From contig JABDAU010000026.1 in the NCBI GenBank assembly GCA_013289045.1, positions 1,343 through 44,006 on the forward strand: DNA of 42,664 nt. Reading direction: 5' to 3'. Positions 22,306-34,712 of the stretch are shown piece after piece (the first letter of the stretch is position 1; the number at the start of each line of letters is the position of its first letter). The translations under genes and the position numbers were made by a program. Under the pieces are notes generated by a model. That model was not told where the DNA came from. It did no database searches and saw nothing but the letters and a program-made list of their open reading frames with translations. This stretch comes from Bacteroidota bacterium. GTDB taxonomy: Bacteria > Bacteroidota > Bacteroidia > Sphingobacteriales > Sphingobacteriaceae.

Positions 22306-22320
22306 AAATCATTTTAGCAA
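22306..22320 (-). promoter_or_regulatory. Shared operator motif, copy S0 (minus strand)
   Basis: On the minus strand this reads TTGCTAAAATGATTT and differs from copy S2 (TTGCTAAAACGATTT) at one base, which breaks the central CG. It faces the large minus-strand gene. The TTG is followed 21 nt later by TATATTGC, a partial -7 box (TAnnTTTG). Confidence 0.5.
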
Positions 22321-22401
22321 GCGTTTTTTGTTGTTTGAGTTCGAAAGGGAGGCTAATTATAAATATGTCAACAATTGCTAAAAAATAATATTAAATATTT
22401 T

Positions 22402-22416
22402 TTGCTAAAACGTTTC
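22402..22416 (+). promoter_or_regulatory. Shared operator motif, copy S1
   Basis: TTGCTAAAACGTTTC contains the LacI-like core AAACGTTT. A perfect Bacteroidota -7 box TACATTTG lies downstream at 22436-22443, but with 31 nt from the TTTG of this motif, so here the motif is not itself the -33 element. It lies in the divergent region 22261-22586. Confidence 0.6.
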
Positions 22417-22522
22417 CGTTTTTGAAAGATGTTTTTACATTTGCCTAATATTCAACCAATTATTTCCTTTTAATTAAGTACTGCTATTGAGAACTGTCGT
22501 TCGCGTATATGATTTGCATATA

Positions 22523-22537
22523 TTGCTAAAACGATTT
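22523..22537 (+). promoter_or_regulatory. Shared operator motif, copy S2
   Basis: TTGCTAAAACGATTT sits 49 nt before the start of the first ricin-domain lipoprotein gene. Central CG positions of S1 and S2 are 120 bp apart. The following sequence has only a weak -7 candidate (TCTTATTG). Confidence 0.6.
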
Positions 22538-22586
22538 ATATCTTATTGCCAATAACTAACCAATCAATAAACCAAAAAACCAAATT

Positions 22587-24242
22587 ATGAAAACAAATTT
22601 ATGGCAATGTGCATCGCTTGCTGCGCTTCTTCTTGCTGCAGGATGCAAAAAAAACCTAACCACCAACGCTAACGGAAGCGCATCCGTCAACTCCAATTTA
22701 ACTTCAAATTCTGTTGTGAGCAGCTACGGAACCTTTACCATGCAAAACGTAGCGAGTACCAAATACTGCGAAGTATCGGGCGTTACCAACCAGGGCACCA
22801 AATTGCTGGATGGTACGGGGCTACAGCAATATGCAGCATCTATCTCAGGTGGTAAAACCGACCGCTGGCAGGAGTGGCAGTTCAGCAAGCAATCCAACGG
22901 CTACTATACCATCATGAACCTCAACAGCGGTAAATACATCGACGTACCCGGCAGCACCACCACATCCGGCGCTACGCTCGATCAATACCGCGGCAACCTC
23001 ACCGACGCGCAATACTGGACAGTAACTGCAGTTGGCAGTAATTACAAGATCACCAATAAAGCCAACGGACTGGCCATTACCAATCACGGCAATTCAGCAT
23101 CCAACGGTACAGTTATCACCCAGGAAACCTACACAGGCGCTAACGATCAGCTATGGACATTGAACGCCATGACGGCCGACAGCTATCGCGATGACGCCGT
23201 AGTAGGCTTCTTCCAGCGCACCAGTGGCTCTGAAGCCTTTGATGGCGGCGCTTCCGTGCCGCTCACCTGGAGCTCGAACAATGGTAAAGTATTCTGGGTA
23301 ACCAATGATGTATTTTATAATCAATTAAATGGCAGTAATGAATTTAATTGCGGGCAGATCTTTAATTATCATAATTCCGGCCTGGTGCAACCCGCCAGCC
23401 ATACGTGGGCTCCTGCCTCAACCGTAAATGTCACCTCGAGCGATGGCGTGCAGATCTTTCACGATGCTACGGCCGGCGCATTGCTGTGGCCAGGTGCAGG
23501 TATTGAAGTTGGGCAGCATGTGTATGTGCACAATATAGAAGTACCTAACGGCAGCCTTTCGGCAGATAAACAATATCTGTGCGACATCACCGAAAGCACT
23601 ACTACCACCATCCCGGCAGTAAATAACCTTACGGTGCCTAACATGAGCACACAAACCGATATCCTGTATTCGATAGGTATGGTAAAACCCGGCGATGGTT
23701 ATGTATATGCTTACGGCCAGGGTGGATTTTTAGGCGCCAGCATTTTTGTGGCACGTTTCCCAACAGGCAGCCCTACCAGCTGGACTTTCTGGAACGGCAC
23801 CACCTGGGCGTCAACACCAAGCACTGCCTCGGCAGCGGTTATTGCAAGTGGCCCGTGTAATAACAATACTATGGGCTATGTAAATGGTAAATACGTGCTC
23901 ATTACAATGGATTTCGGTTTTGCCTGCGATGAAACTTCGCGTAATATGTACGCCTCGACAGCTACCAGTCCAACCGGGCCGTTCACAACCGCCAAAACCG
24001 TTTACAGCCTGGCCGATTACAAGCAAGGCCACGAGCCGGTATTCTACAATCCAACCATCCATGCCGAATTTAACAATGGCCACAGCGAATTGCTGGTTGA
24101 TTATTGCGTGAACTTCTACAGTAAGAATGACGGCACAGGTGCAAACTGCCTCGCCCCATGCTCAAACCCGGATGGCTCGGAAGACCCTAACGACTATCGA
24201 CCGAAAGGGGTGAGGATACCATTCTCGCTTATCGGCTTATAA
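22587..24242 (+). CDS. Lipoprotein: ricin-type beta-trefoil plus probable beta-propeller (paralogue 1)
   Basis: A 551-aa lipoprotein (LLAAGC, lipid Cys20). Residues about 50-195 form a ricin-B-type lectin domain with QxW-style repeats QEWQF, QYWTV and QLWTL. From about residue 200 a second domain starts with SYRDDAVVGFFQR, then VPLTWSSNNGKVFWVTND, repeated aromatic/Asn-rich blades (FVARFPTGSPTSWTFW), and near the end HAEFNNGHSELLVDYCVNF. This resembles Bacteroidota proteins annotated DUF5005/DUF4185-like, which I believe are five-bladed propellers related to GH43-type enzymes (from memory, not certain). Asp in RDDAVV and Glu in HAEFNNGH are candidate catalytic residues. It is probably surface-bound and glycan-binding or -cleaving. 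Two operator copies precede it. Confidence 0.78.
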   Translation: MKTNLWQCASLAALLLAAGCKKNLTTNANGSASVNSNLTSNSVVSSYGTFTMQNVASTKYCEVSGVTNQGTKLLDGTGLQQYAASISGGKTDRWQEWQFSKQSNGYYTIMNLNSGKYIDVPGSTTTSGATLDQYRGNLTDAQYWTVTAVGSNYKITNKANGLAITNHGNSASNGTVITQETYTGANDQLWTLNAMTADSYRDDAVVGFFQRTSGSEAFDGGASVPLTWSSNNGKVFWVTNDVFYNQLNGSNEFNCGQIFNYHNSGLVQPASHTWAPASTVNVTSSDGVQIFHDATAGALLWPGAGIEVGQHVYVHNIEVPNGSLSADKQYLCDITESTTTTIPAVNNLTVPNMSTQTDILYSIGMVKPGDGYVYAYGQGGFLGASIFVARFPTGSPTSWTFWNGTTWASTPSTASAAVIASGPCNNNTMGYVNGKYVLITMDFGFACDETSRNMYASTATSPTGPFTTAKTVYSLADYKQGHEPVFYNPTIHAEFNNGHSELLVDYCVNFYSKNDGTGANCLAPCSNPDGSEDPNDYRPKGVRIPFSLIGL

Positions 24243-24340
24243 TATACAGCATATTGTGTCTGTAACCGGTTAGTTATTCAGCAGGCAATATATGCTTTAC
24301 GATATTGAATATTTGAAATAAGGAATGCCGTTTTTTAATT

Positions 24341-24487
24341 CCTCCCTTGGGAGGGGTGCGGCTGGAGGTGAGTAGGGGTTTGTACGCTAAAATTGGCGAC
24401 TATACCCCTCCCTACGCCCTCCCATCCGCGTGCTGCCGTAGCTTTAGCGGAGGAGCAGGGAGGGAATCGCACTGTCCCTGCTTTTTT
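24341..24487. repeat. G/C-rich intergenic palindromic element between the two paralogues
   Basis: It begins with the palindrome CCTCCC-TTGG-GAGGGG. It continues with G-rich (GGTGAGTAGGGGTTTG) and C-rich (TACCCCTCCCTACGCCCTCC) arms that can fold on each other imperfectly, and closes with a terminator-like hairpin. The composition is unlike the AT-rich surroundings. It resembles dispersed REP-like intergenic repeats of Sphingobacteriaceae as I remember them; only this copy is in the window. It fills most of the 300-nt gap 24243-24542, and no operator copy with a central CG was seen there. Confidence 0.6.
24454..24487 (+). terminator. Terminator-like hairpin at the end of the repeat element
   Basis: AGCAGGGA (24454-24461) pairs perfectly with TCCCTGCT (24475-24482) over a 13-nt loop, and T82-T87 gives a run of six T. 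It would end transcription of the first paralogue before the second. Confidence 0.65.
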
Positions 24488-24542
24488 CAATTTAAAACAT
24501 TTAGATACCCAAACCAATAAACCAAATAAATACCCACAAATT

Positions 24543-26264
24543 ATGAAAACCAGATTGTTTATTTATGTGGCAGCAGTATTGCTGTTCATCATCCAAGGCT
24601 GTAAAAGGAACGAATCCTCGAAATCGCCAGCCGAAAGCGTCAACAAGCCTGCAAAACTTGGCCCCAGTTCGGCGCCGTCGGCCTATGGTACCTTTCAGTT
24701 TACCAATGTTTATAGCAGTAAAGTTTTGGAAGTACGTGGCGACTCGACCTTATTACATCCGCAAAGCAACCCCAAAAATGTGCAGCAATACACTAATTTA
24801 AATTGGGGCACAGGCATATCGGCTAACCAGAAATGGTACCTGATACAGCAGGGCACAGGGCCTATCACCGGCAGTACGGTGTTTCTTATCATGAATGTCT
24901 CAAGCGGTATGCTGCTTGAAGCACCGAACGGTACGTCAGGTACGCAGCTTTGGGTGGATCATGCCAATGGCTTCCCTTCCCAGGCATGGTCCATCCACCA
25001 GGTTACCGGCCAGTCGTACTACTATATTCAGAATGCTAATGGTTTAGTGCTTACCGATCATGCCAGCTCAACTTCAGACGGCGCACCGGTAACCGAAGAG
25101 ACCCTGGCAAATACCACTAACCAGTACTGGAACCTGGGCAGCATTACTAACGAGGCCTACCGCGATGATGCAGTAGTGCAGTTCTTCCATCGCGGCGCTG
25201 TTTCAAATACCACCGTTGCATTTGACGAAGGTAAGAGCGTACCCCTTTCCAACGGCTCTAACAATGGCAAAGTGTTATGGATAACTGAAGATTCTTATGC
25301 ATCAAGCCAGCTGCAGACCAACGGCTATTTGTATTGCCAGTTCTTTTCTTACCATAATTCAGGCCTGTTGCAGCCATCAACAACTAACTGGACATCCAGC
25401 TCAACGCCAAACATTACCACTACCAGTAATTCAGGCACCGGTGTAAGCGAACTGGAGATCATCAAAAGTCCGGGCGCTCATGACGCCACCTATAGCTGGC
25501 CTGGAGTAGGTGTGGAAATAGGCAGTAATGTTTATGAATATACTTATGAATCGGCAAATGGTTCAACTCCTGCAAACCAGGTAGTAAACCAGATTGCTGA
25601 AAGCACCAGCAGCACAGCATGGGGTTCTGTAACAAGGTTAACACCAAACGGCATGTCGGGCCAAACCAAGATCGGTTACTCGGTAGGCATGGTTAAGAAA
25701 TCTTCGGGCGATACCGTTTATGTGTACGGTGCGGAGGGTACGACCTTCAATGCGAACGCTATCTTCCTTGCACGTTTTCCTACATCAAACCCCAGTTCAT
25801 GGACTTTCTGGCGCGGCCATAGCTGGGCTACCACGCCGGATACTACCAGCGCCTTGTCAGGTGCGTTGACCATCGGCAGCGGTACAACTACACAGGCAAA
25901 CACAATGGTATCCTACTGTAATGGTAAGTATGTGATGATACAGCTCGATCTCGGTTATTTCTGCGATCCGTCATCACATAATGTGTATATCTCAACCGCC
26001 ACCAGTCCGTTCGGGCCGTTTACTGCACCTAAGATGGTTTACACTATAGAAGACTGGTACAATGGCCATATTGCCAGATATTATACCCCGGCTATTCATG
26101 CCGAGTTTAACAATGGCCATAACGAACTCCTGATCACCTATTGCCTTAACTACAATGCTGCGGGTGGCAGCTGCTCAACAGCGACATGTTTTGGCGGCAA
26201 TCAGGATCCAAATTTTTACCAGGTTAAAGGGGTTAGGATACCTTATTCATTAATTGGCTTATAA
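24543..26264 (+). CDS. Lipoprotein: ricin-type beta-trefoil plus probable beta-propeller (paralogue 2)
   Basis: About 573 aa from the ATG at 24543, which opens a lipoprotein signal (FIIQGC, Cys20). An in-frame ATG at 24393 would translate through the repeat element and is rejected. The architecture is that of the preceding protein: ricin-like domain (about 50-215, with QKWYL, QAWSI and QYWNL), then AYRDDAVVQFFHR, VPLSNGSNNGKVLWITED, FLARFPTSNPSSWTFW and HAEFNNGHNELLITYCLNY; both end VRIPYSLIGL or VRIPFSLIGL. The paralogues have clearly diverged, so this is an old tandem duplication. It lacks a recognisable operator of its own and lies behind a terminator-like hairpin, so its transcription may depend on read-through or an unseen promoter. 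Confidence 0.78.
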   Translation: MKTRLFIYVAAVLLFIIQGCKRNESSKSPAESVNKPAKLGPSSAPSAYGTFQFTNVYSSKVLEVRGDSTLLHPQSNPKNVQQYTNLNWGTGISANQKWYLIQQGTGPITGSTVFLIMNVSSGMLLEAPNGTSGTQLWVDHANGFPSQAWSIHQVTGQSYYYIQNANGLVLTDHASSTSDGAPVTEETLANTTNQYWNLGSITNEAYRDDAVVQFFHRGAVSNTTVAFDEGKSVPLSNGSNNGKVLWITEDSYASSQLQTNGYLYCQFFSYHNSGLLQPSTTNWTSSSTPNITTTSNSGTGVSELEIIKSPGAHDATYSWPGVGVEIGSNVYEYTYESANGSTPANQVVNQIAESTSSTAWGSVTRLTPNGMSGQTKIGYSVGMVKKSSGDTVYVYGAEGTTFNANAIFLARFPTSNPSSWTFWRGHSWATTPDTTSALSGALTIGSGTTTQANTMVSYCNGKYVMIQLDLGYFCDPSSHNVYISTATSPFGPFTAPKMVYTIEDWYNGHIARYYTPAIHAEFNNGHNELLITYCLNYNAAGGSCSTATCFGGNQDPNFYQVKGVRIPYSLIGL

Positions 26265-26286
26265 TATTATAGTATTGTTTTCCTTG

Positions 26287-26325
26287 AAAAGTACGCAGCC
26301 TAAAAGACTGTGTGCTTTTGTTTTT
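26287..26325 (+). terminator. Intrinsic terminator after paralogue 2
   Basis: AAAAGTACGCAG (26287-26298) pairs with CTGTGTGCTTTT (26308-26319) through all 12 positions if two G-U pairs are allowed, with a 9-nt loop and a downstream GTTTTT. It begins 22 nt after the stop codon. Confidence 0.8.
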
Positions 26326-26340
26326 AATACGTTTTAGCAT
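26326..26340 (-). promoter_or_regulatory. Shared operator motif, inverted copy S3r
   Basis: On the minus strand this reads ATGCTAAAACGTATT, sharing GCTAAAACGT with copies S1 and S3. Its central CG is 56 bp from that of S3. No gene reads leftward here, so it may serve as an auxiliary operator for the downstream gene. Confidence 0.5.
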
Positions 26341-26375
26341 TTTTAAAACAGACTTTGTAAAATTTAAGATAGAAA

Positions 26376-26405
26376 TTTGCTAAAACGTTTTTTGTTATAA
26401 CTTTG
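26376..26405 (+). promoter_or_regulatory. Shared operator S3 overlapping a promoter
   Basis: TTTGCTAAAACGTTTT contains the perfect 10-nt palindrome AAAACGTTTT. Its leading TTTG (26376-26379) is followed after 18 nt by TAACTTTG (26398-26405), an exact match to the Bacteroidota -7 consensus TAnnTTTG. A protein bound to the motif would therefore block the -33 element. The start codon of the GH38-type gene is 45 nt downstream. Confidence 0.65.
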
Positions 26406-26449
26406 CTTACCGTATTATAAATACAAAATTATAAGCCTCCTTTTCCTTA

Positions 26450-29062
26450 ATGAACACTAAAAGTATGTCTTCATCACAATTGCGCCTTGGTGTGGCCCTG
26501 GTAATGATTTTTGCATGCCTGTTACCGAACGCAGCCCGCAGCCAGACAGCCTATTTTATCGATGGCTATCACGGTGGCATCTGGGGCCATTTTCCGGATT
26601 GGAACACGAAATTTATGGCCGATCAATTAAAAAGCCATCCAAATTGGAAGATCAACCTTGAACTGGAGCCTGAAACATGGGACGATGCAAAGAAAAAGGA
26701 TTTATCAGCCTATAACGAGTTCCGCGACCTTTTCACTAATGATTCCACCAAAAACCGCATAGAATACGTAAACCCCGATTATGCCCAAAGCTATCTGTTC
26801 GATATTGAGGGTGAAAGCATCATCGCGCAATTTTATTACGGGATAAAAATGGTGCACCGCCATTTTCCAACGGCCACATTCCCTGTATACTCATCCGAGG
26901 AGCCATGTTTTACCAGCGCCTTACCGGAGATATTGACCTCATACGGTTTCAAATACGCATCGCTGAAAAATCCAAACACCTGCTGGGGAGGCTATACCAG
27001 CGCCTACGGCGGTGAGTTGGTGAATATGATAGGTCCGGATGGTACAAGCATCATCACGTCACCTCGTTATGCGGTTGAGGCGCTGCAACCCGGTTCTACA
27101 TGGCAAACCATCGCATCAGGCAATTCGCCTGAATATATCAAAGCCTGTTTCGCGGTGGGCATCAAACATCCAATAGGCATGACCATACAGGATGCCGGCT
27201 GGAAATATGGGCCGATGTTACGTGATGGCAGCAAAGCTTATCAGCCAACAGAATATACCACATGGGCAAACTATTTTGAAAATCTCGCGATAAAGAACCC
27301 GACCGATAACTGGAAATTCACCCAGGAAGATGTGTTGGTAAGTTTGGTTTGGGGATCGCAGATCTTACAGCGCATCGCACAGGAAGTACGCATTTCGGAA
27401 AACAAGCTCGTTAGCACTGAGAAGCTCGCAGCCATCAGCAAAATATATAATGGTACGCCATATCCGCAAAGCGATTTTGACGTCGCGTGGAGGCCTTTAC
27501 TCTTGTCGCAGCACCATGACTGCTGGATAGTGCCTTATAACGGCCGTTACGGCAATACCTGGGCCGATAAAGTGGTAACTTGGACAAGTACTACCAATAG
27601 CATCGCCGATAGCGTGGTGAGGCTGGATATAGCCCCAGCGGCAAATGGCAAAATATTGGGCGAGACGAGATATGTCAGGATATACAACACGCTCGGCGTT
27701 AAACGCAATGAGCAGGTCGCCGCTGAAGTGCCGGAGGATTGGAAAGGCAAAAATATCAGCGTAATCAATGATACAGGTGTAGCGGTTGCTTCGCAGGTCG
27801 TAACGGATTCTGCATCGGCAAAGCCACAGGTTATTTTTAATGCTGATGTGCCGGCAATGGGTTATACCACCTATCAGCTCAAGCTGCAAAAAGTACTTCC
27901 CTCAAAAAGTATATCGGTCACCGTATTGAAAAATGGTAATTACCATATAGAAAGCGACCTGTACAGCATCACGCTCAACCCGCATAAGGGCGGCGCCATC
28001 ACCAGCCTCATTGCCAAAACATTAAACAATAAAGAGTTTGTAGATAAAGCCAATTCCCGCAGCTTTAACGAATTGCGCGGTAATTTTTATAACGATGGCG
28101 GTTTTCATTCCACAGCGGATAGTGCGGCGAAGATCAGTATCATTGAGCAAGGCCCTGAACGCGTGAAGCTGCAGATAGATGGTACTATCGATCATCATGC
28201 TTTCACCCAATGGCTTACTGTAGACAAAGGCCAGCGACGAATTGATATGCGCGTAAAAATAAACTGGAAAGGCAGTCCCGGGATAGGAGAGGCGGCGCCG
28301 CCAAATACCTTTAAAGCGACAAATCCTAAAAAGGCTTTCTATAACGATAAGGAAAAGCTGCTGGCCATGTTCCCGCTTAACCTGAAGGATCAGAAGGTAT
28401 ATAAAAATGCGCCGTTTGATGTGCTGCAAAGCCGGTTGAAAAATACCTTCTTTACTTCGTGGGATAGCATCAAGAACAACATCCTGCTCAATTGGGTGGA
28501 TGTGACCGATGGAAATAACAATTATGGCATAGCGTTATTGGTCGACCACACCACAAATTACACACATGGGGAAGATTTCCCGTTGGGTTTAACGCTGGAA
28601 TATTCGGGCATTGGCTTATGGGGCAGGAACTATGCCATTAAAGGCCCTACGGATGTACATTACAGCCTGATACCGCATGCAGGCAAATGGGACAAGAGCG
28701 GACTATGGACAGCCAGCGAAGAATGGAACGAGCCGCTTATTGTTAATGTATCAGATGCAATGCCTGCCGGTGCAAAATACCGCTCCCTTGTAGACGCTAA
28801 AAATACGGGCTATGACGTCACTTCCTTAAATGCCGATGGGAATGACCTGACGATCCGTGTATTTAATGCAGAGGGCAGCAATGCGCCTCAGGAGATCATA
28901 TTTGACGGCAAAGCCAACAGGGCAGAATTGGTAGAACTGGATGGCAGAAAACGCGCAGACGTGCAAATGAAAAAAGACGCATCAGGCAAAACTATCCTTA
29001 CGCTGGACATGCCGCGTTTTGGTATACGCACTATAAAACTTTACAGCGTAAGTAAATTATAG
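26450..29062 (+). CDS. Divergent GH38 alpha-mannosidase family protein
   Basis: An 870-aa secreted protein (signal ends near AARSQ). The N-terminus YFIDGYHGGIWGHFP takes the place of the GH38 first strand. EEPCFTSALPEIL (about 150-162) occupies the position of the nucleophile loop, and LLLSQHHDCWIVPYNG (about 351-366) matches the GH38 mid-domain HHD motif. The C-terminal half is the beta-rich GH38C region (about 400-870). Canonical GH38 zinc ligands are H-x-D, a nucleophile Asp, and the HHD His. Here the first is H41-x-G43, the nucleophile position appears to be Glu (E150/E151), and H355-H356-D357 is kept. I recall similar DGYHGG-type proteins in other Bacteroidota, so this looks like a subfamily rather than a decayed gene. 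Substrate is probably an alpha-mannoside, inferred from the neighbouring GH92. Confidence 0.78.
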   Translation: MNTKSMSSSQLRLGVALVMIFACLLPNAARSQTAYFIDGYHGGIWGHFPDWNTKFMADQLKSHPNWKINLELEPETWDDAKKKDLSAYNEFRDLFTNDSTKNRIEYVNPDYAQSYLFDIEGESIIAQFYYGIKMVHRHFPTATFPVYSSEEPCFTSALPEILTSYGFKYASLKNPNTCWGGYTSAYGGELVNMIGPDGTSIITSPRYAVEALQPGSTWQTIASGNSPEYIKACFAVGIKHPIGMTIQDAGWKYGPMLRDGSKAYQPTEYTTWANYFENLAIKNPTDNWKFTQEDVLVSLVWGSQILQRIAQEVRISENKLVSTEKLAAISKIYNGTPYPQSDFDVAWRPLLLSQHHDCWIVPYNGRYGNTWADKVVTWTSTTNSIADSVVRLDIAPAANGKILGETRYVRIYNTLGVKRNEQVAAEVPEDWKGKNISVINDTGVAVASQVVTDSASAKPQVIFNADVPAMGYTTYQLKLQKVLPSKSISVTVLKNGNYHIESDLYSITLNPHKGGAITSLIAKTLNNKEFVDKANSRSFNELRGNFYNDGGFHSTADSAAKISIIEQGPERVKLQIDGTIDHHAFTQWLTVDKGQRRIDMRVKINWKGSPGIGEAAPPNTFKATNPKKAFYNDKEKLLAMFPLNLKDQKVYKNAPFDVLQSRLKNTFFTSWDSIKNNILLNWVDVTDGNNNYGIALLVDHTTNYTHGEDFPLGLTLEYSGIGLWGRNYAIKGPTDVHYSLIPHAGKWDKSGLWTASEEWNEPLIVNVSDAMPAGAKYRSLVDAKNTGYDVTSLNADGNDLTIRVFNAEGSNAPQEIIFDGKANRAELVELDGRKRADVQMKKDASGKTILTLDMPRFGIRTIKLYSVSKL

Positions 29063-29132
29063 ACTCAAAATTTACTACTAAATGGATACGCCAGGCAGAA
29101 AAGACAGTAGGGGACGGTTTGGAAACCTTTCT

Positions 29133-29163
29133 TTTGCTAAATCGAATTTTATATTTATCATTG
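29133..29163 (+). promoter_or_regulatory. Shared operator S4 overlapping a promoter
   Basis: TTTGCTAAATCGAATTTT matches the shared motif. TTTG at 29133-29136 is followed after 19 nt by TATCATTG (29156-29163), 5 of the 6 defined positions of TAnnTTTG. It lies 52 nt before the GH92 gene. Confidence 0.6.
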
Positions 29164-29214
29164 CCTTTAATAACCAATTAAAAAACTATTCTATAGCCAA
29201 TTTATACCCAAGAC

Positions 29215-31533
29215 ATGTTCATTAAAAGGATAGCTGTTGCGGCTTTATGTTTTTCTGCATTTGCAGTAAAAGCACAGCAGGCAACTCCCGCTGATTATAT
29301 TAACCCGTTTATCGGCGCAAGCACAAGTGCTGCCGATGCCGGTGTTTATCATGGTCTTGGTAAAACATTCCCTGGCGCCGCAACTCCTTATGGCATGGTG
29401 CAGGTTAGTCCCAATACAATTACTGGCGGCGATAACGGTCCGGGCTATAGTTATGAGCAAACCAGTATAGAGGGTTTTGCCTTCACCCAAATGAGCGGTA
29501 TAGGCTGGTTTGGCGACCTGGGTAATTTCCTGGTAATGCCAACCACCGGTAAAATGTACACCAACTCAGGGAAAGTTACCGACCAGGTAAAAAATGGCTA
29601 TCGCTCACATTATCTCAAAAGCAGCGAGAAGGCATCTGCCGGATATTACAGCGCCTTACTTACCGACTATAACGTTAAAGCTGAGGCAACTGCCGCGCCA
29701 CACAGCGGTATCCTGCGTTTTACCTTCCCGCAAAATCAACAATCACGTATACAGATAGACCTTGCACGCAGGGTAGGCGGTACGTCAACCACACAATACG
29801 TAAAAGTTGTTAACGACCACACCATTGAAGGCTGGATGAAATGTACGCCTGACGGCGGAGGCTGGGGCAATGGCGATGGCCATGCAGATTACACCGTTTA
29901 TTTCTATGCTGAATTCAGCAAACCGCTAAAAAATTATGGCGTATGGAGTGCGGACATTCCCGATAGCTGGGGACGCAAGCGCGATGACGTTACCAGCGAC
30001 AAATACCAGGATGCCATTGCGCATGCCGCCATATTAAAAGGCGTAAACGAAAAAGAAGGTAAACACCTTGGTTTTTATACAGAGTTTGCCACACATGCCA
30101 ATGAGCAGGTATTGCTGAAATCGGGTATTTCATTTGTAAGCATGCAGGGCGCAAAAGAAAACCTGCAGGCCGAAATAAAAGACTGGAATTTTGAAGCGGT
30201 ACACGCTAATGCAAAAGCGCTGTGGAACAAAGCATTATCGCGTATTGCTGTTGCAGGTGGTACTAAAGAACAAAAGATCGTCTTTTATACTGCCATGTAC
30301 CACACCATGATCGACCCGCGCATTATTAATGATGTGGACGGTAATTACCCGGGTGGAGATGGCAAGGCGCATAAATCGGCCGTATTCAAAAAACGTACAA
30401 TTTTCAGCGGCTGGGATGTTTTCCGCAGCCAGATGCCTTTGCAAACCATCATCAATCCATCGCTGGTGAATGATGAGATCAATTCGCTGGTTTCACTCGC
30501 TGAGCAAAAGAATAAGAATTACCTCGAACGCTGGGAAATGATGAACAGCTACAGCGGCTGTATGATCGGCAACCCTGCTGTGCCGGTTATTGCTGATGCT
30601 TACGCGAAGGGCATCCGTAATTATGATATCCCAAAAACCTATGCGCTATGTGTGGGCTCAGTTGAGCATACAGGCAATGGCGATAGGGGCTATACACCGG
30701 ATCCGCTGAGCGTGTCCTATACTTTAGAGTATGCTTATAGTGAATGGTGCGTTTCGCAGCTGGCAAAAGCATTAGGCAAAACCGCCGATGAAGCCAAATA
30801 CGCAGCGAGAGGCGAGGATTTTAAAAACATTTTCGATCCCGAGCACCACTGGTTCAGGCCGAAGGATAAAAACGGTAATTGGGTAGCATGGCCAGATTCA
30901 GCCATGACCAAAGACTGGTATGGCTGTATCGAAAGTAACCTGTACCAGCAAGGCTGGTTCGTACCGCAGGATGTACCGGGCATGGTAAAACTGATGGGCG
31001 GCAAAGAAAAAGTAATTGCCGACCTGGAAAACCTGTTCGAAAAAACACCGGAAAACATGATGTGGAACGATTATTATAACCACTCTAACGAGCCTGTTCA
31101 TCATGTACCATTCTTGTTCAATCGTCTTGGCGCGCCATGGCTAACTCAAAAATGGAGCAGGGCGGTTTGCCGTCGCGCTTATCATAATGGGGTAGAAGGT
31201 TTATGCGGAAATGAGGATGTTGGGCAAATGTCGGCCTGGTATGTACTGGCTGCCAGCGGTATCCACCCGGTTTGCCCGGGCAATACAAGGCAGGAAATTA
31301 CCAGCCCGGTATTCAATAGCATCACTTTCAAGCTCGATCCAAAATATGCAAAAGGCAAAACCTTCAGTGTGATAGCGCACAACAATTCGGATAAGAATAT
31401 CTATATCCAGAGTGCAAAGCTGAACGGTAAAGCTTATAATAAATGCTATATCGATTATAAAGACATTACCGCCGGCGGCACGCTTGAGCTAACGATGGGC
31501 GCACAGCCGAATAAAAACTGGGGAATAAATTAA
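29215..31533 (+). CDS. GH92 exo-alpha-mannosidase
   Basis: A 772-aa secreted protein (signal peptide ending AVKAQ). The N-terminal beta-sandwich begins YINPFIGASTSAADAGVYHG and carries TFPGAATPYGMVQVSP, both hallmarks of GH92. The (alpha/alpha)6 barrel carries FSGWDVFRSQMPL, WEMMNSYSGCMIGNPAVP, the NEPVHHVPFLFN loop with acid E626, and GNEDVGQMSAWYVL with D668, the proposed catalytic base. Calcium-dependent GH92 enzymes release mannose from alpha-1,2/1,3/1,4/1,6 linkages; the precise linkage is not readable here. All catalytic positions are intact. It is first in a two-gene unit with the SGNH hydrolase (25-nt gap) and has its own operator-promoter. Confidence 0.95.
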   Translation: MFIKRIAVAALCFSAFAVKAQQATPADYINPFIGASTSAADAGVYHGLGKTFPGAATPYGMVQVSPNTITGGDNGPGYSYEQTSIEGFAFTQMSGIGWFGDLGNFLVMPTTGKMYTNSGKVTDQVKNGYRSHYLKSSEKASAGYYSALLTDYNVKAEATAAPHSGILRFTFPQNQQSRIQIDLARRVGGTSTTQYVKVVNDHTIEGWMKCTPDGGGWGNGDGHADYTVYFYAEFSKPLKNYGVWSADIPDSWGRKRDDVTSDKYQDAIAHAAILKGVNEKEGKHLGFYTEFATHANEQVLLKSGISFVSMQGAKENLQAEIKDWNFEAVHANAKALWNKALSRIAVAGGTKEQKIVFYTAMYHTMIDPRIINDVDGNYPGGDGKAHKSAVFKKRTIFSGWDVFRSQMPLQTIINPSLVNDEINSLVSLAEQKNKNYLERWEMMNSYSGCMIGNPAVPVIADAYAKGIRNYDIPKTYALCVGSVEHTGNGDRGYTPDPLSVSYTLEYAYSEWCVSQLAKALGKTADEAKYAARGEDFKNIFDPEHHWFRPKDKNGNWVAWPDSAMTKDWYGCIESNLYQQGWFVPQDVPGMVKLMGGKEKVIADLENLFEKTPENMMWNDYYNHSNEPVHHVPFLFNRLGAPWLTQKWSRAVCRRAYHNGVEGLCGNEDVGQMSAWYVLAASGIHPVCPGNTRQEITSPVFNSITFKLDPKYAKGKTFSVIAHNNSDKNIYIQSAKLNGKAYNKCYIDYKDITAGGTLELTMGAQPNKNWGIN

Positions 31534-31558
31534 CTGGGATAACAAGTCTAAAAATTAT

Positions 31559-32965
31559 ATGAATCTGAAGAAAAAATTACTGTTGGCCTTAGCACTTTGT
31601 GCCGGTGTAGCTGTAAACGTAAATGCGCAAACCATCCCTGCTTTCAAAGCCGGCGACAGGGTAGCTTTCGTTGGCAACAGTATTACCGATGGCGGCCATT
31701 ATCATGCTTACATCTGGTATTATTATATGACGCATTTTCCTAACATGCGCATCACCTGCTATAACGTAGGCATCGGCGGCGACAACGTAAAGCAGATGTA
31801 TGATCGTTTCGAGTATGAAGTGCTGCCAAAAAAACCTACCGTGATGACCCTTACATGGGGGATGAACGACAGCGGTTATTTTGAATGGTTCAAGCCTGAT
31901 GCAAAAACAAACTATGCAAAATGGTCGGTAGATACTGCCGAAGCACGTTATGCTTTGTTTGATAAGAAACTGAAAGAACATCCTGAGTTTAAAAAGATCT
32001 TCATCCTTGGTTCACCTTATGATTCAACTACAACCAGCAATAAAAACCGTTTTTATCCCGGTAAATATGCTGCTTTTGCAAGGTTGATCGATTTTCAGCA
32101 GGCAACTGCACAGAAAAACGGCTGGCCGTATGTTGATTTCAACCATCCGATGACTGAGATCAACCGCGAGTGGCAAAAAAGAGATACCAATTTCAGCCTT
32201 ACCCCGTATGACCGGATCCACCCGGATTATGCAGGTCACCTGGTGATGGCATACTTATTCCTGAAAGCACAAGGCATGGCTAACAAGCCTGTTGCCGATT
32301 TTGCTGTGAATGCAAAAAGCAAGGCAGTAAGTAAATCTGTAAACTGCACCATCAGCAATGTATCGGGCACTGATAACAATATTTCATTTGATTATCTGGC
32401 TAATTCATTACCATATGCTTTTGATACTGTGGAATTTAAAGCCAACTGGGGCCAGCATGGCCGCCAGATAGAAGGCATTAAATATGTCCCCTTTATGCAG
32501 GAGTTTGACAAAGAAGAATTGACTGTTAAAGGCCTGAAAAGCGGTACTTATAAATTAATTATGGACGGCCAGGAGATAGGGCAGTGGGATGCAAAAGACC
32601 TGGAGGCAGGTATCAACCTTGCTGAACAAACCTACACGCCCGAATATCAGCAGTCGCTTGCGCTTATGCAAATGAACGAGGAGCGTTTCGAAATTGAACG
32701 CAGATTAAGGAACTACGCTTTTGTAGAATTCGATCTGTTAAAACAGAAACATCTTTTGTATGCCGACAATAAAGCAGCAATGGATACGGTGAACAAAGAA
32801 GCAAAGCACAATCCGTTTGTGGGCGGTAACCGCGATAACTACATTAAAGCACAATATAAAGTAATGCGCGATGCATGGCAGGGCGAAATGGATGCTTTGA
32901 TAAATGAGATCTACATTGCCAATAAGCCAAAAACGCACAAGGTAGAGCTGGTTTTAGTTAATTAA
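31559..32965 (+). CDS. Secreted SGNH/GDSL hydrolase with C-terminal extension
   Basis: A 468-aa protein with a signal peptide (cleavage near VNAQ). All four SGNH blocks are present: FVGNSITDGGHY with S41, NVGIGGDNVKQM with Gly, LTWGMNDSGY with N103, and DRIHPDYAGH with D218 and H221. The catalytic domain ends near residue 240. The remaining about 230 residues include a beta-rich module (about 250-350) and a helical, charged tail (EERFEIERRLRNYAFVEFDL). It probably removes acetyl or other acyl groups from the glycan attacked by GH92/GH38; this is inference from context. It is co-transcribed with the GH92 gene. Confidence 0.9.
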   Translation: MNLKKKLLLALALCAGVAVNVNAQTIPAFKAGDRVAFVGNSITDGGHYHAYIWYYYMTHFPNMRITCYNVGIGGDNVKQMYDRFEYEVLPKKPTVMTLTWGMNDSGYFEWFKPDAKTNYAKWSVDTAEARYALFDKKLKEHPEFKKIFILGSPYDSTTTSNKNRFYPGKYAAFARLIDFQQATAQKNGWPYVDFNHPMTEINREWQKRDTNFSLTPYDRIHPDYAGHLVMAYLFLKAQGMANKPVADFAVNAKSKAVSKSVNCTISNVSGTDNNISFDYLANSLPYAFDTVEFKANWGQHGRQIEGIKYVPFMQEFDKEELTVKGLKSGTYKLIMDGQEIGQWDAKDLEAGINLAEQTYTPEYQQSLALMQMNEERFEIERRLRNYAFVEFDLLKQKHLLYADNKAAMDTVNKEAKHNPFVGGNRDNYIKAQYKVMRDAWQGEMDALINEIYIANKPKTHKVELVLVN

Positions 32966-33074
32966 GCTTATTCCAACCGCAGTTTAAGGCATTATGAGAC
33001 TGTTGATTTAATAATATTAGTAGCCAATTATTTATTACCTGTGATATTTCAATTTAATCTTCAAAAAATCTAAA

Positions 33075-33539
33075 ATGAAAAAAAACCTTAAACTTTTATT
33101 GGGACTGATCATTTTGGTCTCAATTACTACATCAGTTTACGCCGGTACATTACCAGTGAAAACTGCGCATAATATGATGAAATTGTCGTCAAATAAATTT
33201 AGTAAGTTAAAAAATACCGATGACATCAGTTATATGTTTCTATTCGATGCGGTTGGCGGAGCTAATGGCTATTATAATGTAACTATATATTTTGGGGTTT
33301 ATGACTCCACAAATGAAACTGTTACCTTTCAGAGCTGCCCGCAAAATATAAGCATATCTTCAACTTACCTGAGTGGTACATTTCCTGCCGGTTATTCAAG
33401 CATTAATATAGGCTCTTTATATTTTGGCAGCTCGGCGCCACTGAATATCCCAGTTACAACTAGTCCTACGTCAATAAGCGGTATACCGGTTGATCAGGGT
33501 GTATATAATGTTAGTGAACTTGCATTTCTCCCTCATTAA
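33075..33539 (+). CDS. Small secreted protein of unknown function
   Basis: A 154-aa protein with signal peptide MKKNLKLLLGLIILVSITTS, mature protein about 130 aa. It is rich in Ser, Tyr, Gly and Asn with alternating hydrophobic residues (ANGYYNVTIYFGVYDS, YSSINIGSLYFGSS), suggesting an all-beta fold. There is one mature Cys (SCPQN). I recognise no family. It lies between the SGNH hydrolase and an esterase within the utilisation locus, 109 nt after the former, without an operator copy of its own in that gap. A glycan-binding or adhesive accessory role is a guess. Confidence 0.6.
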   Translation: MKKNLKLLLGLIILVSITTSVYAGTLPVKTAHNMMKLSSNKFSKLKNTDDISYMFLFDAVGGANGYYNVTIYFGVYDSTNETVTFQSCPQNISISSTYLSGTFPAGYSSINIGSLYFGSSAPLNIPVTTSPTSISGIPVDQGVYNVSELAFLPH

Positions 33540-33575
33540 TTGACCTGGGAATTGCTGAACAAATAAATGATTGGG

Positions 33576-33616
33576 ATCCCGGCAGTTTTTAATTAAGAAT
33601 GATCAGCTGCCGGGAT
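33576..33616. terminator. Perfect 10-bp hairpin between small protein and esterase
   Basis: ATCCCGGCAG (33576-33585) and CTGCCGGGAT (33607-33616) are perfect reverse complements with a 21-nt loop. No T run follows on the plus strand, so it may be a transcript-stabilising or attenuating stem rather than a true terminator. Confidence 0.45.
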
Positions 33617-33644
33617 TTAAAAAAGGAACTATAAACTTTCAACC

Positions 33645-34478
33645 GTGTTAAGGAAATTTTTCATTATTCATGTTGCCCTGGTTCTTGGGTTTAGTGCATT
33701 TTGCAATGCAGCAATTGTGGATACTGCGCTTACCTACAGCGCTGCTATGCATAAAAACATAAAAGCGGTTGTAGTAAAACCAAACGATTATTCGGCAAGC
33801 AAAAAATACCCGGTAATTTACCTGCTGCATGGCGCGGGCGGCAAATATTCAGATTGGGTTACCAACACGCCTGATAAACAAACTGTTCCGAAACTGGCCG
33901 ATCAGTATGAGGTGATCATTGTTTGCCCTGACGGAAATGTTACCAGCTGGTATTTTGATAGCCCGGAAGATCCGGCTTATCGTTATGAAACTTATGTTTC
34001 TTCCGAGCTGGTTAAATATATCGATGAACATTATTCTACCATTACCGACCGTTCGGGCAGGGCAATAACCGGTTTGAGCATGGGCGGGCATGGTGCTTTG
34101 TACCTGGCTTTCAGGCACCAGGATGTTTACGGCGCCTGCGGAAGTATGAGCGGCGGTGTTGACTTGAGGCCATTCCCTGAAAACTGGGATATTGCCAAAA
34201 GGCTTGGGAAATACAGCGAGCATCCGGATAGGTGGGAAGAGAATAGTGTTATAAACCTAACCTATTTATTGTCCAACAATCATTTGGCCATAACATTTGA
34301 TTGCGGAAAGGATGATTTCTTTTACCAGGTAAATAAAAATCTGCACGAAAAATTGCTGGAGCGCAATATCCCGCACGATTTTACGGTGCGTCCGGGAGGG
34401 CATAGCTGGGAGTATTGGGGTAACTCAATTAATTACCAGGTGCTGTTTTTTAGCAGGCTTTTTAACAAATCCAAGTAA
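33645..34478 (+). CDS. Secreted esterase, esterase D / CE1 family
   Basis: 277 aa from a GTG start at 33645 (MLRKFFIIHVALVLGF signal, cleavage near FCNAA). It has the alpha/beta fold of PF00756: VIYLLHGAGGKYSDW near residue 57, nucleophile elbow GLSMGGHGA with S145, acid among D219/D223/D224 in FDCGKDDFF, and H253 in PGGHSWEYW. These form a complete triad. The family includes feruloyl and acetyl-xylan esterases and S-formylglutathione hydrolase; the signal peptide and location favour a polysaccharide esterase. It lies 29 nt after the hairpin, just before the 376-nt regulatory gap that leads the SusC/D block. Confidence 0.85.
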   Translation: MLRKFFIIHVALVLGFSAFCNAAIVDTALTYSAAMHKNIKAVVVKPNDYSASKKYPVIYLLHGAGGKYSDWVTNTPDKQTVPKLADQYEVIIVCPDGNVTSWYFDSPEDPAYRYETYVSSELVKYIDEHYSTITDRSGRAITGLSMGGHGALYLAFRHQDVYGACGSMSGGVDLRPFPENWDIAKRLGKYSEHPDRWEENSVINLTYLLSNNHLAITFDCGKDDFFYQVNKNLHEKLLERNIPHDFTVRPGGHSWEYWGNSINYQVLFFSRLFNKSK

Positions 34479-34647
34479 TTGTAACAATTTTCATACAATA
34501 ATTTGGATTTGATGATAGAATGAGTTAACTATGTATAGATGTATATACATGCCAATTGTTGCCAAAATCGGGATATTAACACTGATTTATAGTAAATATT
34601 AACATAAAAACGGGCTATTTTAACAAATGTGAAATTTAAAAAAAAAA

Positions 34648-34712
34648 TTTGCTAAACCGATTTTTACTATTATATTAGCATTAGATTCTTGATCAGAATT
34701 ATAAACCGATTT
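34648..34712 (+). promoter_or_regulatory. Shared operator pair S5/S5b with promoter, in the gap before SusD
   Basis: S5 is TTTGCTAAACCGATTT (34648-34663). Its TTTG is followed after 19 nt by TATATTAG (34671-34678), 5 of the 6 defined positions of the TAnnTTTG -7 box. S5b, ATAAACCGATTT (34701-34712), repeats the core 49 bp away, measured CG to CG. The 376-nt intergenic region 34479-34854 thus contains one operator-promoter and a leader of about 170 nt. That leader includes the small stem TTAAG-TGCTG-CTTAA near 34757; nothing else in it was recognised. Confidence 0.6.

What the first reader, a model, noticed from the sequence alone, without database searches (positions are those of the whole stretch)
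22306..34712. A shared CG-centred motif TTGCTAAAnCGnTTT marks the promoters of the mannoside locus
Copies at 22402, 22523, 26326 (inverted), 26377, 29134, 34649, a truncated core at 34701, and a one-base variant at 22306 (minus strand). All lie in gaps before a transcription unit. The core AAAnCGnTTT with a central CG is the hallmark of LacI/GalR operators. No regulator is encoded in the window. If real, this defines a regulon from sequence alone, covering the lectin-propeller lipoproteins, GH38, GH92-SGNH and the SusC/D block.
Basis: partly seen in the sequence, partly recalled or inferred. Interest (0 to 1): 0.8.

Follow-up and report, generated by a model that had tools for sequence, protein, structure and literature searches.

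The report
LacI operator fused to mannoside promoters
A 15-base DNA sign stands before the predicted mannose-sugar-digesting genes of this Mucilaginibacter-like bacterium and before the matching genes of many relatives, and it is likely the docking site of one LacI-type repressor, encoded elsewhere in the genome, that would switch these genes on together when the sugar is present.

Summary
The motif is real. Four sites (22402, 26377, 29134, 34649) are conserved islands before the lectin, GH38, GH92 and SusD genes in close relatives. In 80 GH38 loci the exact motif occurs 113 times between genes and 2 times inside. It sits on a predicted Bacteroidota promoter: its start matches the -33 TTTG, and a TAnnTTTG -7 box follows at fixed distance in 53 of 91 non-redundant sites. 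The regulator, not seen in the window, is most likely one of the four LacI proteins found in this 63.5%-complete genome, on contig C61 beside GH92, GH92 and GH130 genes. Loci around its relatives hold 11 exact sites in 119 kb, against 0 in 348 kb around relatives of the other three; a word count around lacI puts the motif's words first. The set of eight is too generous: 22306, 26326 and 34701 are not conserved. The site is only half a palindrome. Binding, repression and effector are untested. An ordinary kind of system, with a new regulator group and an operator whose one arm coincides with a promoter element.

The parts
22402..22416 (+). operator-like site TTGCTAAAACGTTTC upstream of the first lectin gene
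   Evidence: 1 mismatch; conserved island in L042-L045, with the same final C in three of the four
22523..22537 (+). second operator-like site (exact), 121 bp downstream of the first, before the lectin gene
   Evidence: kept in L043 only among 4 relatives aligned
26377..26391 (+). operator-like site (exact) overlapping the predicted -33 box of the GH38 promoter
   Evidence: conserved in 4 of 4 relatives aligned
26398..26405 (+). predicted -7 box TAACTTTG of the GH38 promoter, perfect TAnnTTTG
   Evidence: read; consensus from a PMC7366714 passage; position across sites
29134..29148 (+). operator-like site TTGCTAAATCGAATT before the GH92 gene
   Evidence: (1 mismatch); conserved in 3 of 3 relatives aligned
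29156..29163 (+). predicted -7 box TATCATTG (1 mismatch)
   Evidence: read
34649..34663 (+). operator-like site (exact) before the SusD/SusC block
   Evidence: conserved in 4 of 4 relatives aligned
34671..34678 (+). predicted -7 box TATATTAG (1 mismatch)
   Evidence: read
22306..22320 (-). weak candidate site (TG in place of the central CG) before the minus-strand gene; not conserved
26326..26340 (-). weak inverted candidate (2 mismatches); not conserved
34703..34712 (+). bare core AAACCGATTT; CG not kept in relatives; probably not an operator
22587..24242 (+). ricin-B-type lectin protein, predicted target
   Evidence: Pfam PF14200
24393..26264 (+). second ricin-B-type lectin protein; no site with up to 2 mismatches directly before it
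   Evidence: Pfam PF14200
26450..29062 (+). GH38 alpha-mannosidase, predicted target
   Evidence: Pfam PF07748
29215..31533 (+). GH92 alpha-mannosidase, predicted target
   Evidence: Pfam PF07971
31559..32965 (+). SGNH/GDSL esterase, same predicted unit as GH92
   Evidence: Pfam PF13472
33645..34478 (+). esterase
   Evidence: Pfam PF00756
34855..36723 (+). SusD-like protein, first gene of the SusD/SusC block
   Evidence: Pfam PF07980
38448..41576 (+). SusC-like TonB-dependent receptor
   Evidence: Pfam PF07715, PF13715

Best explanation
The repeated site is a conserved sequence in predicted promoters that is likely bound by one LacI-family repressor, encoded on another contig (C61) of the same genome, which would keep the mannoside genes off until its sugar signal arrives. 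Shown here: the site is conserved between genes; its left end matches the -33 TTTG of the Bacteroidota consensus, with a -7 box at fixed distance; it is linked to genes of the C61 LacI group and not to the other three LacI groups found in the genome. Inferred: the repressor dimer docks on the site, covers the -33 box and the -33/-7 spacer and so blocks RNA polymerase; mannose or an alpha-mannoside breakdown product releases it; the lectin, GH38, GH92-SGNH and SusD/SusC units, the C61 GH92-GH92-GH130 cluster and a GH2 gene on contig C22 then come on together.
For: Conservation: 113 exact sites between genes against 2 inside in 80 GH38 loci (open-frame calls, the first 60 bases of each frame counted as gap); footprint islands. 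Promoter geometry: TAnnTTTG with at most 1 mismatch starting 21-23 bases after the motif start in 53 of 91 non-redundant sites, 1 to 13 in the 13 other three-base bins; 108 of 113 sites lie on the strand of GH38. Regulator: 11 exact sites in 9 of 30 C61-type lacI loci (119 kb), 0 in 30 C1-type, 30 C23-type and 27 C38-type loci (348 kb); larger loci: 17 exact sites, all between genes, in 12 of 20 C61-type loci against 0 in 20 control loci, with TTTGCTAAA the top plain 9-base word (14 of 20 against 1 of 20) and TTGCTAAA.CG the top gapped word (14 against 0); second set: 12 exact sites in 11 of 20. Exact motif in the GH38 locus of 36 of 42 genomes with a close C61-type LacI against 8 of 37 without. 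Most regulators read share the helix xTT(V/I)SF(I/V)LNG, in Salegentibacter and Mesonia at 42-43% identity too. A central CG fits LacI operators (PMC4052901 passage). Genes after 29 sites: GH92 in 7-8, ROK 7, MFS 5, GH125 1 (three genes counted twice). The own regulator lies beside GH92, GH92 and GH130 genes.
Against: The site is only half a palindrome: the outer TTGCT arm is mirrored (4 of 5 bases) in 6 of 108 sites, and two other offsets score 8 and 9; the two free positions are complementary in only 29 of 91. The own lacI has no site within 1.5 kb (L122); its five nearest orthologues have none within 1.5 kb (L309-L313) and one exact site in five 19-kb loci. 17 of the 40 larger C61-type loci have no exact site. 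GH38 loci of 6 of 42 genomes with the regulator lack the exact motif, and two such genomes (G078, G122) have no exact site at all. G098 has 8 exact sites but only a 46% relative of the regulator. 10 of the 30 sites sampled from genome scans lie inside genes. Genome-wide counts at 1 mismatch do not exceed control outside the window. The genome is 63.5% complete, so a fifth LacI or another regulator could be missing. [quoted passage not shown] Relatedness of the genomes was not corrected for.
Confidence: 0.8

Rival explanations
1. The motif is a promoter class only: the -33 region of promoters used by a particular sigma factor or activator, and the LacI link is a by-product of both belonging to mannoside loci.
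For: Strong strand bias (108 of 113), fixed -7 box, one-sided arm.
Against: The -7 box is that of the primary sigma factor (PMC7366714 passage); the positions either side of CG show mirrored exclusion, no G at +8 and no C at +11 in 91 sites; no exact site near the other three LacI groups; no other regulator family is found in more than 2 of the 41 proteins of 100-420 aa scanned from 12 GH38 loci (larger proteins such as HTCS were not scanned).
Confidence: 0.1
2. A different, unseen regulator binds the site, for example an AraC- or GntR-type protein coded elsewhere, as HTCS_Man and ManR (GntR) do for alpha-mannosides in Bacteroides.
For: B. thetaiotaomicron regulons for alpha-mannosides are assigned to HTCS and GntR regulators (PMC3878776 passages); the genome is incomplete; two Dyadobacter loci have site pairs 21-22 bp apart, the period of the HTCS_Man direct repeat.
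Against: HTCS_Man sites are two 16-bp direct repeats with a 5-bp spacer; the window's sites are single or 121 bp apart and CG-centred; group-level and locus-level link to the C61-type LacI.
Confidence: 0.07
3. Chance: an AT-rich word that recurs in AT-rich gaps.
For: Genome-wide 25 hits against 17 for the control at 1 mismatch; three window sites are not conserved.
Against: 113 to 2 between genes and inside them; islands conserved in diverged flanks; 0 of 100 shuffles reach the window count.
Confidence: 0.02

Closest known systems
LacI-family local sugar regulons (RegPrecise collection, PMC4052901)
   Same: LacI-type protein by Pfam (HTH plus sugar-binding domain); central CG; sites upstream of sugar genes; mannose and mannosides already listed there for five LacI groups named ManR (passages)
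   Different: Only the core AAAnCGnTTT is mirrored, the outer arm is one-sided; the arm coincides with a -33 TTTG; the best NCBIfam model is RbsR, below its cut-off; the best-scoring solved relatives are CcpA proteins
ManR (GntR family, BT2103) and HTCS_Man-1/2/3 regulons of Bacteroides thetaiotaomicron (PMC3878776)
   Same: Assigned to alpha-mannosidases and SusC/SusD transport for alpha-mannosides
   Different: Other protein families; HTCS sites are direct repeats (passages)
LacI regulators KdgR, UxaR, UxmR and UxuR of Bacteroides (PMC3878776)
   Same: LacI family in the same phylum
   Different: Predicted for uronates, not mannosides (table passage); relation to the C61 group not tested

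Membership tests
LacI-family regulon (regulator side) | N-terminal LacI HTH and C-terminal sugar-binding domain | tested here: met
   PF00356 and PF13377 over cut-off on L033:8050-9087
LacI-family operator | even palindrome with central CG | tested here: inconclusive
   Central CG and mirrored core AAAnCGnTTT are part of the pattern; mirrored exclusion at the free positions; outer arms mirrored in only 6 of 108 sites, not clearly above other offsets
LacI-family operator | sites lie upstream of genes, rarely inside them | tested here: met
   113 between genes, 2 inside in GH38 loci; in the sample from whole-genome scans 10 of 30 lay inside genes
LacI-family regulon | regulator gene linked to or autoregulated by its own sites | tested here: inconclusive
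   Linked group-wide; exact site within 200 bases downstream of lacI in L276, L277, L279 and L288; own lacI has none within 1.5 kb
LacI-family repression | DNA binding and release by a sugar | not testable with these tools
   needs protein and cells
Primary-sigma promoter of Bacteroidota | TTTG near -33 and TAnnTTTG near -7 | tested here: met
   T at 85% just before TTG; -7 box at 21-23 in 53 of 91; transcription starts not mapped
HTCS_Man regulon | two 16-bp direct repeats with 5-bp spacer | tested here: not met
   In the window the only same-strand pair within 250 bp is 121 bp apart; of 35 pairs listed, 2 (Dyadobacter L085, L089) are 21-22 bp apart

The most novel reading that the evidence does not exclude
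One half of the operator is the promoter itself: across Mucilaginibacter, Pedobacter, marine Flavobacteriia and some Chitinophagaceae, a LacI-group repressor reads the primary sigma factor's -33 box as one half-site, so promoter and operator cannot drift apart; twin sites before the lectin and SusD genes, whose spacings fall near 99, 107-111 and 117-123 bp, would be bridged by a DNA loop.
Probability: 0.35. Interest if true: 0.6.

Novelty: new variant of a known kind. Interest (0 to 1): 0.5.

Why it matters
It gives a named candidate regulator, a short consensus and a gene list for alpha-mannoside use in Bacteroidota outside the gut; the regulation of such loci that I saw in print concerns gut Bacteroides (HTCS, GntR; PMC3878776 passages). 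It lets mannoside genes be sought by their control site in genomes without expression data, and it offers a simple test case for how a repressor and the unusual Bacteroidota promoter share one piece of DNA.

Tried and rejected
Chance alone: rejected for four sites by conservation and by 113 to 2. Other LacI proteins of the genome (C1, C23, C38): rejected by 0 exact sites in 348 kb; the single 1-mismatch C38 hit (C38:9856) recurs in none of the other 26 C38-type loci. A neighbouring regulator of another family: 41 of 76 proteins of 100-420 aa from 12 GH38 loci were scanned; of the 35 left out by eye, 32 hold the positions of the recurring esterase and small proteins of the SusD block and 3 were left out without a further reason; AraC 2, LuxR 2, winged HTH_24 2, others single (the tool showed the first 25 of 53 families, ordered by count; proteins above 420 aa were not scanned). 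Window proteins: 26 were scanned and no DNA-binding family appeared; the SusD gene cut by the window end and small ORFs were not scanned. RNA families at gathering scores and tRNAs: none. Helical phasing of twin sites: suggestive only, R 0.59 at 10.5 bp and 0.68 near 11.5-11.75, with related genomes and no correction. Coupling of the two free positions: not found. Word count: the plain 9-base words were chosen without regard to the motif, but the gapped word shape (8 bases, one free, 2 bases) was chosen with the motif in mind, so the gapped result is not blind. Literature: the searches listed no paper that by title or abstract start treats this motif or this regulator group; one search listed 20 of 625 papers holding TTGCTAAA as text, so absence there proves little.
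Full report
Observation. The window is contig C26:1343-44006 of a 63.5%-complete genome of 3.75 Mb; its GH38 protein is closest to Mucilaginibacter-type proteins (69-74% identity in the five best loci). The motif gives 10 hits with up to two mismatches against 2.4 expected. Of the eight listed copies three are exact, three have one mismatch, one has two, and one is a bare core. A genome-wide scan at up to one mismatch gives 25 hits against 17 for the pattern read backwards, so the pattern alone does not define a regulon; 7 of the 25 lie in this window. Of the 18 outside it, 13 lie between open frames. Ten of those 13 downstream genes were scanned: GH2 (the only exact site outside the window), GH92, a carbohydrate esterase (SASA), an SGNH esterase, a CBM4_9 protein and a DUF4185 protein with a sub-threshold GH43 match are glycan-type; MetE, an ECF sigma factor, a histidine phosphatase and one protein without a family are not. 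The other three (L010, L012, L019) were not followed.

Conservation. In 80 GH38 loci, most from Bacteroidota records, the exact motif occurs 113 times between genes and 2 times inside, although open frames make up 83% of the sequence (the first 60 bases of each frame were counted as gap, to allow for wrong starts). In an alignment with relatives, the islands before the lectin gene (22402), GH38 (26377), GH92 (29134) and SusD (34649) are kept in otherwise diverged gaps; 22523 is kept in one of four, 22306 and 26326 have no counterpart, and the 34701 core reads CA for CG. So four, perhaps five, of the eight sites are well founded.

Promoter geometry. Aligning the 113 sites shows T at 85% just before TTG, giving TTTG, and a box like TAnnTTTG further down. 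With redundancy removed (91 sites), the box with at most one mismatch begins 21-23 bases after the motif start in 53 sites; the 13 other three-base bins tested held 1 to 13. TTTG near -33 and TAnnTTTG at -7 is the primary-sigma consensus deduced in Bacteroides fragilis; [quoted passage not shown] In the window, 26377 is followed by a perfect TAACTTTG (26398-26405), and 29134 and 34649 by one-mismatch boxes; 22402 and 22523 have no such box at that distance. The motif is therefore a predicted -33 region and an operator candidate at once, and its strand bias (108 of 113 on the strand of GH38) would follow from this.

Symmetry. The core AAAnCGnTTT is mirrored, and the free positions show mirrored exclusion: no G at the first and no C at the second in 91 sites, with 12.5% G and 14.5% C in the flanks. 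The two free positions are complementary in only 29 of 91. The outer arm TTGCT is mirrored in 6 of 108 sites, not clearly more than at some other offsets (8 and 9 at the best); none of those six has a -7 box on that strand, against 54 of 102 of the rest. The numbers are small, but they fit the view that the promoter makes the site one-sided. LacI operators are described as mostly even palindromes with a central CG (PMC4052901, passages).

Regulator. None of 26 window proteins scanned has a DNA-binding family. Four LacI proteins were found in the incomplete genome. The C61 protein (L033:8050-9087, minus) lies beside two GH92 genes, a GH130 gene matching the BT3780-type beta-1,2-mannosidase model over its cut-off, a glutaminase-A-like gene and a GH127-like gene. 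A one-mismatch site stands about 54 bases before the first GH92 of that contig, in inverted orientation. In a set of 151 genomes of the family, loci of about 4 kb around the best relatives of each LacI were fetched: 11 exact sites in 9 of 30 C61-type loci, none in 30 C1-type, 30 C23-type and 27 C38-type loci. In larger loci (19 kb, one of 14.5 kb), 20 of the C61 type hold 17 exact sites, all between genes, in 12 loci; 20 control loci (ten C1, ten C23) hold none. A count of words in the gaps of these loci puts TTTGCTAAA first among plain 9-base words (14 of 20 loci against 1 of 20) and TTGCTAAA.CG first among gapped words (14 against 0); the gapped shape was chosen with the motif in mind. A second set of 20 from genomes with GH38 loci holds 12 exact sites in 11 loci. 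Some genomes are shared between these sets and the GH38 loci, and relatedness is not corrected.

Co-occurrence. Of 79 genomes behind the GH38 loci that could be searched (L100 not held), 42 hold a close C61-type LacI (400 bits or more), and 36 of these have at least one exact motif in the GH38 locus; of 37 without, 8 have one (Fisher p 7e-9). Of the 8, four (two Dyadobacter, Salegentibacter, Mesonia) carry a more distant member of the group inside the locus itself, L074 holds a piece of the gene (residues 88-339), L075 a 53% relative, L060 none found, and in L083 the site is called inside a gene. The six exceptions the other way are L048, L056, L065, L076, L097 and L107. In the 151 family genomes 88 have an exact motif; G078 and G122 have the regulator and no exact motif, and G098 has eight exact sites with only a 46% relative. 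Comparing contig lengths and positions by hand places lacI about 14-28 kb from GH38 on what appears to be the same contig in several Mucilaginibacter (L051, L052, L054, L056, L057, L058, L071, L115). In the genomes of the five nearest GH38 loci (L042-L046) the regulator instead sits in a block with NrtR and two ABC genes, with GH127 in four of five, as on C61, so in this lineage it would act from a distance.

Recognition. Most regulators read carry the helix xTT(V/I)SF(I/V)LNG, including some at loci without an exact motif (L270, L273, L285); the two Flavobacteriaceae members, 42-43% identical overall, share it and have TTGCTAAAACGTTTT before GH38 and TAGCTAAAACGTTTT after lacI. The Flavisolibacter and Ilyomonas proteins differ in the helix and are not clearly linked to the motif. 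The genome's other LacI proteins have R or K where this group has F (read).

Regulon. Genes directly after 29 sites of other genomes (15 from genome scans, 14 from lacI loci): GH92 in 7-8, ROK-family kinase 7, MFS transporter 5, TonB receptor 2, GH125 1, ricin-type lectin 1. By position three of these genes are met twice (L158/L287, L166/L279, L174/L288), so 26 are distinct. Before that count 47 sites were examined: 10, all from the 30 genome-scan loci, lay in genes, and 8 had no gene in reach in the motif's direction. Alpha-mannosidases, sugar kinase and sugar transporter together suggest uptake and phosphorylation of mannose; that the effector is mannose or a mannoside is inference.

Known ground. 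In B. thetaiotaomicron alpha-mannoside loci are assigned to HTCS_Man-1/2/3 and to ManR of the GntR family (PMC3878776, passages). LacI groups for mannose and mannosides exist in other lineages (PMC4052901, table passage). PMC5306329 was seen in passages: a lacI is named in a legend with the xylan and pectin loci of Gramella flava. The searches listed no paper naming this motif or this group. The finding is thus a LacI regulon of ordinary kind, with a candidate new regulator group, a defined operator and a promoter element built into it.

Noticed in passing
L050, L051, L055, L058, L062, L063, L069, L074, L081 and others, upstream of the SusD gene: Twin sites, TTGCTAAATCGTTTT then usually TTGCTAAAACGATTT, spaced 99, 107-111 or 117-121 bp apart; the window's lectin promoter has a pair at 121 bp. 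Spacings look stepped by about one helical turn.
   Followed up: partly
L057, L062, L064, L069, L070, L074, L081, within 80 bp of the start of the gene that precedes GH38: Tandem pair 27-28 bp apart in which the second copy has CA or TG in place of the central CG (usually TTGCTAAATCAATTT).
   Followed up: no
L033:9296-9310 and L033:14011-14025: Variant sites TAGCAAAATCGATTA (between lacI and the GH127-like gene) and AAGCAAAATCGATTT (minus strand, before the glutaminase-A-like gene) on C61; could be a weaker or sister operator.
   Followed up: no
window 34698-34707: ATTATAAACC or nearly so is conserved downstream of the SusD promoter in relatives although the CG after it is not; perhaps a leader or start-site feature.
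   Followed up: no
G000 C61 and relatives L369-L373: NrtR-type regulator beside two ABC exporter genes and the lacI, 88-90% identical across relatives.
   Followed up: no
L270, L273, L274, L275, L285: C61-type lacI loci without an exact motif although the recognition helix is the same.
   Followed up: no
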